Of a stretch of 64,000 nucleotides of DNA, positions 3,713 through 8,497 are shown one piece after another; the stretch's first letter is position 1, and each line of letters begins with the position of its first letter. The position numbers were made by a program, and so were the translations under genes. The DNA is from Gemmatimonadota bacterium (GTDB lineage Bacteria > Gemmatimonadota > Gemmatimonadetes > Gemmatimonadales > GWC2-71-9): positions 62,001 to 126,000 of the forward strand of contig QHUJ01000119.1 in assembly GCA_003221895.1 (NCBI GenBank). The letters are read 5' to 3'. Under the pieces are notes generated by a model. That model was not told the DNA's origin, did not search any database, and saw only the letters and a list, made by a program, of their open reading frames with translations.

Positions 3713-4896
3713 TCGCCGAGTTTTCTCGCGAATCCCACAATCCGATCGAGGGCCTGCTTGATCGCATCCGTCGCAGCCGCATACGACAGCCGCACCCAGC
3801 GATCATCACCGAATGCCGCGCCAGGAACCAGCGCCACGCCGGTCTGAGTGATCAGGCGCGTACAGAAGTCCGTGCCGGTGATCCTGCCGAACGAATCCAC
3901 TCTGAAGAAGAAGTAGAACGCCCCCAACGGGTCGACGAACTCGACGCCGGGGAGATCCTGGCGAAAGCGCGACACGACCAGGTCGCGGCGTTTGCGGAAC
4001 TCCGCCACCATCCGGTTGACGTCCTGCTCCACTCGCTCGTCGCCGAGGGCCGCCGCGGCCGCGAACTGCGCGGGATGGTTTGCCCCGGTCGTCGTGTGCG
4101 ACTGCAGGGCGGCCATCGCTTTCGCTACCTTGGCGGGCGCGAGGGCAAAGCCGATGCGCCAACCGGTCATCGCGTACGTCTTGCTGACGCCGCTGATGAG
4201 CACCACGCGCTCGAGCAAATCGTCGGGCAGATCGAGGAATGACGGCGCCGGGCCAGTGCCGTAGTGAATGCGCCGATAGATCTCGTCCGCGACGACCCAG
4301 GCATTTCTCGCCTTGGCCCACTGCGCGATCGCGCGAATCTCCGCGTGCGTGTACACCGCGCCGGTCGGGTTGCACGGCGAGCACAGAATCACCCCGGTGG
4401 CGCCAGGCAACATGCGCTCGAGGTCTTTGACGCTGGCCTTGAGACTCCACTCGGGATCGCCCGCGACCATCACGGGGCGCGCCCGCGCGAGGTGCACGAT
4501 CTGCGGATACGACACCCACGCCGGCGCAGGAATCGCGACGACGTCGCCGGGCCCGAACAGCGTGAAGCACGCGTTGAAGAGCGACTGTTTGGAACCGTTC
4601 GACACGACGATGTGATCGGCATTGACCGGCCGCCCGCCCGACAGCAGCGACAGATGCGTCGCCGCGGCCGCCCGCAGCTCGAGAATCCCTTCGTTCGCGG
4701 AGTAGTGCGTCTTGCCGTCCTTGATCGCGCGAATGCCCGCGTCGGCGGGAATCGAGGGCGTCGGGAAATCAGGCTCGCCCGCGCCGAGGTCGATGACATC
4801 CTCGCCCGCGGCCTTGCGGCGCTTGGCTTCGGCGGAAATCGCGATGGTCGCGGACGTCTCGAGATGCTGCAGGTTGGCGGACAGACCTTCAATCAT
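3709..4896 (-). CDS. pyridoxal-phosphate-dependent aminotransferase (aspartate aminotransferase type)
   Basis: DLGAGEPDFPTP, SNGSKQSLFNA, SPCNPTGAVY, VVADEIYRRIHY, SGVSKTYAMTGWRIGF. Confidence 0.93.
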   Translation of the reverse strand: MIEGLSANLQHLETSATIAISAEAKRRKAAGEDVIDLGAGEPDFPTPSIPADAGIRAIKDGKTHYSANEGILELRAAAATHLSLLSGGRPVNADHIVVSNGSKQSLFNACFTLFGPGDVVAIPAPAWVSYPQIVHLARARPVMVAGDPEWSLKASVKDLERMLPGATGVILCSPCNPTGAVYTHAEIRAIAQWAKARNAWVVADEIYRRIHYGTGPAPSFLDLPDDLLERVVLISGVSKTYAMTGWRIGFALAPAKVAKAMAALQSHTTTGANHPAQFAAAAALGDERVEQDVNRMVAEFRKRRDLVVSRFRQDLPGVEFVDPLGAFYFFFRVDSFGRITGTDFCTRLITQTGVALVPGAAFGDDRWVRLSYAAATDAIKQALDRIVGFARKLGD

Positions 4897-6032
4897 CGCG
4901 GGATGGCTCCATGCCGTTTGAGGATCGTGATGGTGGAATCGACGGGGAGCGCGCGCACAACGCCACGATAGCCCCGTACCGTCTCGGCGCGCAACAAGGA
5001 ATTATCGATTGCTTCTTCGGTCGCGTCGATGGTTGCCTGGAACAATCCGGACATCGCGTCGTTGCGGACGACCTCGACCGAGTCGGTCAAGCGGTCGGCC
5101 GGTCGGACGGCCGGACGGCGAGTCGAAAACGCGATCACGTAATCTCCGCTCCCGTTGCTCATCGAGCTGCCGGTGCGCGCGAGACCGGCGAGCGCGCGAT
5201 GCGCGAGGCGCTGCAGGCGGAGGTGATCGAGCGGCGCGTCGGTCGCGACGACCATGATGATGGACCCATCCCCTGACCCTCCTCCCCCTTCCCCCTTTCG
5301 CAGCTCGCGACCGACCGGCACACCCGCCATCGTCAGCTCCCCACCGAAGTTCGTTTGCACGAGGACGCCGATGGTCCAGCCACCAAACTGTGCCGGCAGC
5401 TTACGGCTCGATGTCCCGATCCCGCCTTTCCATCCGAACGCGACGGTCCCCCGGCCGGCCCCTACGGCACCTTCTGCGACGGGGCCTTCAGCCGCGGCGC
5501 GGATTGCGCTCAAGACGTCGGCTTCGGTGATCGGGCGCGCGCGGATGTTATTGAGAAAGCCGTCATTCGTCTCGGCGACGACCGGATTGGCGGACCGGAC
5601 GTCTTCGTTGCCGGGGAGTGACAGCAGCCAGCTCAACACGGCGTCTGCGGCGCGCGGCACGCATAACGTGCACGTCAACACGATCGGCGACTCGAGCTCA
5701 CCCAGCTCGTTCACCTGGGTCGAGCCCGTGAGCTTCCCAAACCCGTTTCCCACCACGATGGCGGCGGGCACTTTGTCGCGGAACGGATTGCCGCCGTGCG
5801 GCAGAATCGCCGTGATCCCCGTGTTGATCGAGTCTCCGCGCGCGATCGTCGTATGACCCACACGCACACCCGCGACATCCGTAATGGCGTCTAGGGGACC
5901 GGTGGGGAGGGATCCGATGACAATGCCGATGTCGCGAGCGCGCGGGCGTTGGTTCTGAGCACCCAGAGAAGCCGCGGAAAACAGCAGTAGAACGAGGAGG
6001 CGATTGCCTTTCACGAGCCTCGAAACTAGCAT
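4893..6032 (-). CDS. P1 family (S58/DmpA-like) peptidase, secreted
   Basis: Signal peptide MLVSRLVKGNRLLVLLLFSAASLGAQ; DAITDVAGVRVGHTTI, GITAILPHGGNPF, VGAGRGTVAFGWKGGIGTSSR. Confidence 0.88.
   Translation of the reverse strand: MLVSRLVKGNRLLVLLLFSAASLGAQNQRPRARDIGIVIGSLPTGPLDAITDVAGVRVGHTTIARGDSINTGITAILPHGGNPFRDKVPAAIVVGNGFGKLTGSTQVNELGELESPIVLTCTLCVPRAADAVLSWLLSLPGNEDVRSANPVVAETNDGFLNNIRARPITEADVLSAIRAAAEGPVAEGAVGAGRGTVAFGWKGGIGTSSRKLPAQFGGWTIGVLVQTNFGGELTMAGVPVGRELRKGEGGGGSGDGSIIMVVATDAPLDHLRLQRLAHRALAGLARTGSSMSNGSGDYVIAFSTRRPAVRPADRLTDSVEVVRNDAMSGLFQATIDATEEAIDNSLLRAETVRGYRGVVRALPVDSTITILKRHGAIPR
5080..5119. repeat. octamer array x5 inside the S58 peptidase gene
   Basis: GAGTCGGT|CAAGCGGT|CGGCCGGT|CGGACGGC|CGGACGGC; encodes RRPAVRPADRLTDS. 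Confidence 0.65.
5264..5298. repeat. heptamer array x5 inside the S58 peptidase gene
   Basis: ACCCATC|CCCTGAC|CCTCCTC|CCCCTTC|CCCCTTT; encodes KGEGGGGSGDGS. Confidence 0.6.
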
Positions 6033-6045
6033 CTTCTCCGGGTCT

Positions 6046-7287
6046 ATGCCGCAGTCTTTGACAATCGAGGGACGAGTGAAGGGCGAACGGAGTCGGCACA
6101 CAGTTATCGTGGCGCCCCCTGCCGTCGAGCAGGTGGGCAAGGCGTGGGATTTGATCGATTCCCGCGCGGTGGTCATTTGCGCCGACCATGAGCAGGCCGC
6201 GCTCTGGGCCGAAGCCGCGCCTCCCGAACACCGCGCTCATGCCGTCACCGGTCTCGCACGCACCGCGGCTCTTCTTAAGGAAGGGCGCGTCGGCCTGCTT
6301 GCCGGCTCTCCCCCTGATCTTGCCGCACTCGTCGCCCGCGCCGCGCTCAAGCTCGAATCGATCGAAACGCTTGTCATCGCCTGGCCCGAGAGCTTCGCCG
6401 ACGAACTGGACGCGGTGCTCGCCGAGGCACCCAATGCCCGCCGCGTGATCCTGAGCTGGAATCCGCCCGCGCTCTCCGAATTCCTCGAGCGTCATGCCCG
6501 GCGCGCGGAAGTCAGCGGTGATCTGCCCCTCGATTCCGACGGCAATCCCCTCGGCCCCGTCGGCTCGGCGCGGTATGCAGTCGTCTCATCGGCACGCCGC
6601 GCCGCAGGAGCGCGGGATACGCTGAACACGCTGCGAGCGACGCGACCCTACGTGTGGTACGGCGGTGAGATTACACCACCCAAAGACCCCGACGTAGTCG
6701 TTGCGGGCACCTTGCCAACCCGTGACGAAATGCGGGCCCTGATCGCCACCCAGGCCCAGCCCGTTGTGCTCGCACTCGCGACGCAGTTGCCATATCTCAG
6801 GTCAATCGCGGTGCTGACTCCGTTGCCATTCTCCCCTTCCGCCGACCGTGCCGCGGACCGCGCCGCCACATTGCGCGGGCGCATCGCGGAACGGCTGGCG
6901 CGCGGGGACGTGGATGCGGAACTCGCGCTGCTGGCACCGCTGTTCGAGGACTACGATCCGGCGCTCGTGGCGGCCGCGTTGCTGGCATTGCAACGGGAAA
7001 CGGGAACCGAGAACCCGGACACAGTAGCGCCGCCGCCGAGCGAGAGCGGCGCCTGGGCGAGACTGTTCGTCACCACGGGACGAAAAGACAAAGCGAGCGC
7101 CAAAGACCTGGTTGGGGCGTTGATCAAGGAAGCTGGACTAGAGAAGGGACAGATCGGCAAAATCGACGTGCGGGAGACGTTCTCACTGGTCGAGGTGGCG
7201 CCGACCATCGCGGAGCAGGCGGCGCGGCGACTCACGGGCGTCTCGATCCGCGGACGACGGGTCACGGCGCGTCCCGATCGCGCATAG
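6046..7287 (+). CDS. DbpA RNA-binding-domain protein with a degenerate DEAD-box-helicase-like region
   Basis: C-terminus ARLFVTTGRKDKASAKDLVGALIKEAGLEKGQIGKIDVRETFSLVEVAPTIAEQAARRLTGVSIRGRRVTARPD matches the DbpA RBD pattern. No GxGKT and no DEAD motif in the helicase-like N-terminal part. Confidence 0.7.
   Translation: MPQSLTIEGRVKGERSRHTVIVAPPAVEQVGKAWDLIDSRAVVICADHEQAALWAEAAPPEHRAHAVTGLARTAALLKEGRVGLLAGSPPDLAALVARAALKLESIETLVIAWPESFADELDAVLAEAPNARRVILSWNPPALSEFLERHARRAEVSGDLPLDSDGNPLGPVGSARYAVVSSARRAAGARDTLNTLRATRPYVWYGGEITPPKDPDVVVAGTLPTRDEMRALIATQAQPVVLALATQLPYLRSIAVLTPLPFSPSADRAADRAATLRGRIAERLARGDVDAELALLAPLFEDYDPALVAAALLALQRETGTENPDTVAPPPSESGAWARLFVTTGRKDKASAKDLVGALIKEAGLEKGQIGKIDVRETFSLVEVAPTIAEQAARRLTGVSIRGRRVTARPDRA
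6992..7019. repeat. heptamer array AACGGGA-type x4 in the helicase-like/DbpA-RBD linker
   Basis: AACGGGA|AACGGGA|ACCGAGA|ACCCGGA; encodes RETGTENPD. Confidence 0.7.
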
Positions 7288-7320: not shown

Positions 7321-7351
7321 CGTCGTATCGTCTTGTCGTCGTGTCGTCTTA
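7320..7351. repeat. octamer tandem array TCGTCKTR x4
   Basis: TCGTCGTA|TCGTCTTG|TCGTCGTG|TCGTCTTA read directly; overlaps the stop codon of the HU gene. Confidence 0.8.
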
Positions 7352-7639
7352 CTTCTTGTTGTTCACCGCGAGCTTCAGCTGCTTTCCAGCGCGGAACGCC
7401 GGCGCGATCGACGCCTTGATCTGGATGACACCACCCGTCTTGGGGTTGCGTCCCATTCTGGCGGCGCGCTTCCGGGCTTCGAAGTTGCCGAACCCGGTGA
7501 TCTGAACCTTCGCGCCCTTCTTCAATTCCACGGCGATGATGCCCTTGTCGTCGAAGAGCGCTTCGATCGTGCGCGTGGCATCAGCCTTCGACATCTTGGT
7601 GCGCATGGCCAGGGCGGCGGTGAGTTCTGCTTTGTTCAC
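7349..7639 (-). CDS. hup: HU family DNA-binding protein
   Basis: GTG start at 7639 with AAAGGAG upstream; VNKAELTAALAMRTKMSKADATRTIEAL...ITGFGNFEARKRAARMGRNPKTG...PAFRAGKQLK. Confidence 0.95.
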   Translation of the reverse strand: MNKAELTAALAMRTKMSKADATRTIEALFDDKGIIAVELKKGAKVQITGFGNFEARKRAARMGRNPKTGGVIQIKASIAPAFRAGKQLKLAVNNKK

Positions 7640-7686
7640 TGCGAGCTCCTTTGAGGGGGGGCGCAAAAACCCGCATAAATACTGGC

Positions 7687-7717: not shown

Positions 7718-7891
7718 GATAGCTGGCTTTTCTGGGGATACTTGTCGGCAGTTCGGCATGACGAGCGGTTCGGCACGTCTCCATGTCTGCACGTTGCGAC
7801 AACGACAGGCGGCCGCTAGCCTCACCTCGCTGGCATTGCCATTCGTGCTACGGGCCGACGCGCCGACGTGTATCGGCAATCGCGAGGATCA

Positions 7892-8497
7892 ATGTTCCAA
7901 TCCACCCGCCCAGGATGGATCGAGGTAATCTCAGGCGTCATGTTCAGCGGCAAATCGGAGGAATTAATTCGTCGGGTGCGCCGCGCCGTCATTGCTCGCA
8001 AACGAGTCCAAGTCTTTAAGTCGCACCTAGATGCACGGTATGCCGGACTGTTCTCCGTCTCCTCGCACGACGGGGTGACGGTCGAAGCTGAGCCCGTGGA
8101 CTCCGCCGACGAGATCGCGCGTCGCGTCCGCGACACCACCGAAGTCGTGGCGATCGACGAAGCCCAGTTCCTCGACGACGGCATCGTCGACACCGTCAAC
8201 CGGCTCGCCAACCAGGGCGTGCGGGTCATTCTCGCGGGCACCGACGTCGATTTTCGCGGGTTGCCGTTCGGTCCGATGCCGACGCTCATGTGCATCGCCG
8301 AGGTCGTGGACAAGTTCCAGGCGATTTGCGTCGTCTGCGGCGGCTCGGCGACGCGAAACCAGCGACTCCTCAACGGCAAACCGGCTCCGTGGGATAGTCC
8401 GACGATCATGGTGGGCGGGCGGGAGAGTTATGAAGCTCGCTGCAGACACTGTCATCGCGTTCCCAGGCAGGACGAAGATCAGACTGCCCTGCTCTAG
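7892..8497 (+). CDS. tdk: thymidine kinase
   Basis: [46 protein letters not shown], zinc site CVVCGG...CRHCH. Confidence 0.95.

What the first reader, a model, noticed from the sequence alone, without database searches (positions are those of the whole stretch)
6046..7287. ATPase-dead helicase-like protein that keeps a DbpA RNA-binding domain
The C-terminal about 75 aa fit the DbpA RBD well (LFVTTGRKDKASAKDLVGALIKEAGLEKGQIGKIDVRETFSLVEV). The preceding region has helicase-like order, but where DEAD and SAT motifs would fall it reads LVIAWPESFADELDAVL and RRVILSWNPPALSEFL, and there is no Walker A. DbpA RBD binds 23S rRNA helix 92 in known proteins; here it may act as a non-catalytic assembly factor or competitor of a true DbpA.
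Basis: partly seen in the sequence, partly recalled or inferred. Interest (0 to 1): 0.62.

Follow-up and report, generated by a model that had tools for sequence, protein, structure and literature searches.

The report
Motor-dead RNA helicase, conserved in Gemmatimonadota
A soil bacterium carries a relative of the RNA-unwinding DeaD/DbpA helicases that has lost every part needed to burn ATP but keeps the fold and the RNA-binding tail; it is kept under selection across a whole bacterial class, so it probably works as an RNA-binding scaffold instead of a motor.

Summary
ORF 6046-7287(+) encodes a DbpA-type RNA-binding domain (Pfam PF03880, E 4e-22) behind a region without Walker A, DEAD, SAT, V or VI motifs. 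It is a degenerate DEAD-box helicase: its family profile matches CshA, Hera and DbpA by sequence, aligns colinearly with intact DeaD-type paralogues (hhalign E 1.2e-35), and AlphaFold plus Foldseek gives a RecA-like domain (TM 0.78-0.80). Class-level relatives form a graded series: Walker A kept but DEAD lost, then Walker A eroded, then neither. They form one clade at one syntenic position (AspAT-pseudohelicase-HU-TK-CoaE-GcvH-GcvP); the intact paralogues lie elsewhere and are absent from this genome. Purifying selection (dN/dS 0.18; RBD 0.095) and new conserved residues where motifs I and II were (PP, WPE) exclude a decaying pseudogene. The real start is probably GTG 6076, behind a gene-specific leader TTTGACAAYCGAGG. 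Not supported: 23S helix 92 specificity, and competition with a true DbpA (no other RBD protein here; some orthologues dropped the RBD but kept the core). Best reading: a non-catalytic, possibly dimeric RNA-binding scaffold; that role is inferred. In the open-access papers searched, this bacterial DEAD-box pseudohelicase family is undescribed.

The parts
6004..6032 (+). promoter-like site TTGCCT-N17-TAGCAT
   Evidence: similar TTGC..-N16-18-TA[GC]CAT found upstream of many orthologues; consensus match only
6057..6070 (+). gene-specific leader element TTTGACAATCGAGG, ending in the Shine-Dalgarno GAGG (6067-6070)
   Evidence: once in own genome; exact in 30 of 61 family genomes; 29 of 30 loci checked carry it directly before this gene
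   Evidence: dN/dS 0.18
6076..6519 (+). degenerate RecA1-like domain (residues 1-148)
   Evidence: AF2 pLDDT 90.9, Foldseek query TM 0.78-0.80 to DEAD-box N-domains; profile hit to CshA and Hera
6112..6135 (+). position of motif I: APPAVEQV instead of AATGTGKT; Pro-Pro conserved in 29-30 of 31
6379..6390 (+). position of motif II: AWPE instead of DEAD; WPE conserved in 27-28 of 31
6454..6465 (+). position of motif III: SWNP instead of SAT
6520..6825 (+). shortened RecA2-like domain (residues 149-250); motifs V and VI deleted
6853..6996 (+). DeaD-type dimerization-like helical segment (PF25399, below cut-off)
   Evidence: E 2.6e-4, 21.4 bits against cut-off 23; intact paralogue L106 matches at 1.3e-9
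7060..7272 (+). DbpA-type RNA-binding domain PF03880
   Evidence: E 4e-22; most constrained domain, dN/dS 0.095
4893..6176 (-). divergent Peptidase S58 gene (syntenic neighbour)
7349..7648 (-). HU-type DNA-binding protein (syntenic neighbour)
7868..8497 (+). thymidine kinase (syntenic neighbour)

Best explanation
The gene encodes a pseudohelicase: a paralogue of DeaD/CshA-type DEAD-box RNA helicases, fixed early in the Gemmatimonadota class, that has lost the motifs for ATP binding and hydrolysis. It retains (shown by sequence, model and conservation) a RecA1-like domain, a shortened RecA2-like domain, a dimerization-like helical segment and a DbpA-type RBD. Inferred role: a non-catalytic RNA-binding scaffold, probably dimeric, that holds structured RNA through the RBD and uses the remodelled RecA surface (new conserved PP, WPE, Arg62, Arg123 and ERHARR) to contact a partner, for instance ribosome-assembly intermediates or the RhlE-like helicase of this genome. 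Steps shown: origin, loss of motifs, fold (predicted), selection. Steps inferred: RNA target, dimer, partner, pathway.
For: RBD. Motif-by-motif alignment with intact paralogues and intermediates. Relatives with the same architecture still match Pfam DEAD: L063 1e-16, L065 7e-12, L053 1.3e-10. Family profile hits CshA 4.5e-17, Hera 1e-13, DbpA 3e-21 in PDB sequences; hhalign to intact paralogues E 1.2e-35, colinear. AF2 mean pLDDT 86.8, best Foldseek hit full-length E. coli DbpA E 7.6e-15; isolated RecA1 model pLDDT 90.9, TM 0.78-0.80 to DEAD-box N-domains. All 44 degenerate rows lie on one side of a branch with 100 support, at one conserved locus. dN/dS 0.18, RBD 0.095. New residues conserved where motifs I and II were. 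Relatives found in 58 of 61 genomes (some of those hits are only the RBD of the intact paralogue).
Against: No experiment. Six sampled orthologues (L081-L086) lack the RBD but keep the core, so RNA binding by the RBD is not needed everywhere. The dimerization match is below Pfam's cut-off. Canonical RNA-contact residues of motifs Ia and Ib are also changed, so the core itself may no longer touch RNA. No operon partner hints at the pathway; the neighbours are unrelated enzymes and HU.
Confidence: 0.6

Rival explanations
1. The RecA-derived core is a protein-protein adaptor whose job is not RNA binding; the RBD is an optional extra.
For: Orthologues L081-L086 at the same locus lost the RBD and keep the core; two of those genomes, G052 and G060, have no RBD protein at all.
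Against: In the window's genus the RBD is the most constrained domain (dN/dS 0.095), and it is kept in all sampled f1, f3, f4, f5 and f6 members.
Confidence: 0.2
2. It still binds a nucleotide in a non-canonical way and switches shape without hydrolysis.
For: Class relatives L063, L055, L052 and L068 keep Walker A (AGSGAGKT, AASGSGKT) after losing DEAD, so a binding-only stage plausibly exists. The PP loop at the old P-loop is conserved.
Against: In the window protein the Lys and Gly residues of the P-loop are all gone and the Q-motif region is missing.
Confidence: 0.1
3. One reading: competitor or regulator of a true DbpA at 23S helix 92.
For: Shared RBD family; several f2 genomes hold both a degenerate and an intact copy.
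Against: No other RBD protein in this genome. The parent is DeaD/CshA-like. RBD specificity varies within the family (PMC3695512).
Confidence: 0.07
4. A decaying pseudogene.
For: It is the fastest-evolving of the seven genes compared at the locus.
Against: Open frames, dN/dS 0.18, class-wide retention at one locus, new conserved residues.
Confidence: 0.02

Closest known systems
DeaD/CsdA/CshA-type DEAD-box RNA helicases with dimerization domain and DbpA RBD (here L106, L102 and others)
   Same: domain order and homology over the whole length (hhalign E 1.2e-35)
   Different: motifs I, II, III, V, VI absent; RecA2 shortened; different genomic locus
E. coli DbpA / B. subtilis YxiN
   Same: RBD family; best structural hit of the full model
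   Different: catalytic core dead; hairpin 92 specificity not shown; far below the DbpA equivalog cut-off
Utp25, yeast SSU-processome pseudohelicase (PMC9539457)
   Same: DEAD-box fold with vestigial motifs, proposed to come from a duplicated helicase, non-catalytic
   Different: eukaryotic, not known to carry a DbpA RBD, known to act in ribosome assembly
Deinococcus radiodurans PriA pseudohelicase (PMC4504706)
   Same: bacterial helicase relative with lost motor
   Different: a DNA replication-restart helicase family, not DEAD-box RNA

Membership tests
DEAD-box RNA helicase (active) | Walker A / motif I (A.TG.GKT) | tested here: not met
   APPAVEQV at the site
DEAD-box RNA helicase (active) | motif II DEAD | tested here: not met
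   AWPE
DEAD-box RNA helicase (active) | motifs III, V and VI | tested here: not met
   SWNP; V and VI deleted
DEAD-box RNA helicase (active) | ATPase / unwinding activity | not testable with these tools
   needs purified protein
DEAD-box-derived fold (homology) | RecA-like N-domain of DEAD-box type | tested here: met
   TM 0.78-0.80, rmsd about 3 A; profile hits
DbpA-type RBD proteins (PF03880) | RBD over the gathering score | tested here: met
   78.5 bits against 25.6
DbpA/YxiN sensu stricto | NCBIfam equivalog NF008744 over cut-off | tested here: not met
   57.2 bits against 524
DbpA/YxiN sensu stricto | specific binding of 23S hairpin 92 | not testable with these tools
   RBD specificity differs between members (PMC3695512)
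DeaD dimer | dimerization domain PF25399 over cut-off | tested here: inconclusive
   21.4 bits against 23, E 2.6e-4
Pseudohelicase (pseudoenzyme criteria used for Utp25) | homologous fold plus vestigial motifs | tested here: met
Pseudohelicase (pseudoenzyme criteria used for Utp25) | no catalysis but retained function shown by experiment | not testable with these tools
   only selection is shown

The most novel reading that the evidence does not exclude
A class-wide bacterial family of DEAD-box pseudohelicases that acquired its own conserved surface (PP, WPE, ERHARR) and its own autoregulated leader (TTTGACAAYCGAGG), and in the window's lineage stands where the intact DeaD helicase has been lost, working as an ATP-independent RNA-assembly scaffold; the relatives preserve the stepwise loss of a DEAD-box motor.
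Probability: 0.25. Interest if true: 0.75.

Novelty: new variant of a known kind. Interest (0 to 1): 0.55.

Why it matters
Pseudohelicases are rarely described: PMC9539457 counts Utp25 as only the second proposed. A bacterial one retained across a class, with living intermediates at one syntenic locus, would let the order of loss (hydrolysis first, then nucleotide binding, in places even the RBD) be read directly, and would raise the question of what a DEAD-box scaffold does without ATP. It also warns that an RBD hit or a DbpA label does not imply a helicase.

Tried and rejected
Single-sequence search of genome contigs found nothing, and the diverse alignment had no usable stretch; a tighter alignment worked, but its two seed patterns lie in the RBD, so the all-Gemmatimonadetes result does not exclude relatives in other phyla. 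Weak Pfam hits CMS1 (E 0.29) and DUF883 (0.27) were dismissed as chance; PHROGs gave none. RNA folding of the leader: no stable structure (z +1.3). Reading TTGACA as a -35 box was rejected: no -10-like box follows it, its distance to the GTG is nearly fixed, and its distance to the upstream TAGCAT box is not. The YxiN specificity residue K427 has Lys at the aligned position here by hand count, but E. coli DbpA has another residue, so no target was called. Full-length TM-scores are low (0.3-0.4), probably because domains are oriented differently, so the RecA1 domain was modelled alone.

Full report
Observation. The ORF at 6046-7287(+) is real. Its C-terminus is a DbpA-type RBD (PF03880, E 4e-22) and a sub-threshold DeaD dimerization match precedes it. 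NCBIfam's DbpA model matches only far below its cut-off. By pattern search there is no P-loop, DEAD, SAT, motif V or motif VI in this protein or its genus relatives.

Start codon. Genus relatives have a stop codon just upstream of the region equivalent to ATG 6046. In most orthologues a Shine-Dalgarno GAGG and a GTG are conserved at the position equivalent to 6067-6078, behind TTTGACAA. The start is therefore most likely GTG 6076, giving 403 aa that begin just before the old P-loop; the Q-motif region is gone.

Homology to DEAD-box helicases. (i) A profile of 31 motif-less orthologues finds CshA (4.5e-17 over RecA1 and part of RecA2), Hera (1e-13) and DbpA (3e-21) among PDB sequences. (ii) Against intact DeaD-type paralogues of the phylum, hhalign gives probability 99.9 and E 1.2e-35, colinear from RecA1 to RBD. 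(iii) Class-level members of the same family match Pfam DEAD directly: L063 1e-16, L065 7e-12, L053 1.3e-10. (iv) AlphaFold with 25 sequences gives mean pLDDT 86.8; the best Foldseek hit is E. coli DbpA, E 7.6e-15, with low global TM, probably because of domain orientation. The RecA1 domain alone gives pLDDT 90.9 and query TM 0.78-0.80 to DEAD-box N-domains at about 3 A.

Graded loss. At motif I the phylum shows AATGTGKT (intact), AGSGAGKT or AASGSGKT (family f6), ASSGAGVT, ASSGAGVV, AGPGSGLL, AAPGAGVL (f4, f5), and APPAVEQV-like (f1, f3). At motif II: DEAD, then DGAS/DGAA/DSAH, then AWPE or AWxD. Motifs V and VI are lost in all degenerate members aligned. The tree puts all 44 degenerate rows on one side of a branch of length 1.12 with support 100 (quick method). 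The f6 Walker-A keepers are nested inside, so Walker A was lost more than once if it was not regained (inference). This suggests an order of decay: hydrolysis first, nucleotide binding later.

Locus. AspAT-(S58)-pseudohelicase-HU-TK-CoaE-GcvH-GcvP is conserved in the genus and family and partly to class level, including Walker-A-keeping L063 (HU beside it) and the RBD-less members (neighbours identified). The intact paralogues share none of these neighbours in the stretches fetched. They are therefore two old paralogues. All named hits are Gemmatimonadetes.

This genome. It has one RBD gene, this one. Of its 13 PF00270 hits, the strongest is an RhlE-like DEAD-box helicase without RBD; one other that was checked is RecQ; the rest were not named. 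The intact DeaD-type copy seems absent; the assembly is 97% complete.

Selection. dN/dS in the genus is 0.18: RBD 0.095, dimer segment 0.14, RecA1 0.17, RecA2 0.23; neighbours range 0.03-0.11 (dS is near or above 1, so values are rough). Positions that replaced motifs I and II are conserved (PP 29-30 of 31; WPE 27-28 of 31), as are Arg62, Leu85, Arg123 and Arg139 (31 of 31) (numbering from GTG). This is a kept and remodelled protein, not debris.

RBD not always kept. Six sampled f2 orthologues (L081-L086) have no RBD but still match the helicase-core profile; two of those genomes, G052 and G060, have no RBD protein at all. The core has a use of its own there (inference).

Leader. TTTGACAAYCGAGG occurs once in this genome (exact) and in 30 of 61 family genomes (reversed control: one hit in all). 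In 29 of 30 loci it sits directly before this gene's start (the exception, L153, lies with an unrelated ORF). Its function is unknown; autoregulation is a guess.

Interpretation. The best reading is a non-catalytic RNA-binding scaffold derived from a DeaD-type helicase. The helix 92 target and competition with DbpA lack support (for RBD versatility). The nearest functional analogy is Utp25, by analogy only. In the open-access papers searched, only three mention 'pseudohelicase' and none appears to concern this family.

Noticed in passing
6057-6070: TTTGACAAYCGAGG just before the GTG start is conserved and nearly unique per genome; no RNA structure found; could be an autoregulatory or translation-control site.
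   Followed up: partly
L081, L082, L083, L084, L085, L086: Syntenic orthologues that dropped the RNA-binding domain but kept the pseudohelicase core; genomes G052 and G060 then have no DbpA-RBD protein at all.
   Followed up: partly
L063:124-1902, L055, L052, L068: Family f6 members keep Walker A but have DGAS instead of DEAD: possible ATP-binding, non-hydrolysing intermediates.
   Followed up: partly
4893-6176 and 6076-7287: The divergent Peptidase S58 gene and the pseudohelicase overlap as called or lie within about 40 bases of each other; the S58 start is probably nearer 6033 than 6176.
   Followed up: no
L019 and L121: Very long open frames (756 and 865 codons stop to stop) run through the pseudohelicase gene; likely a high-GC open frame, not a fusion.
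   Followed up: no
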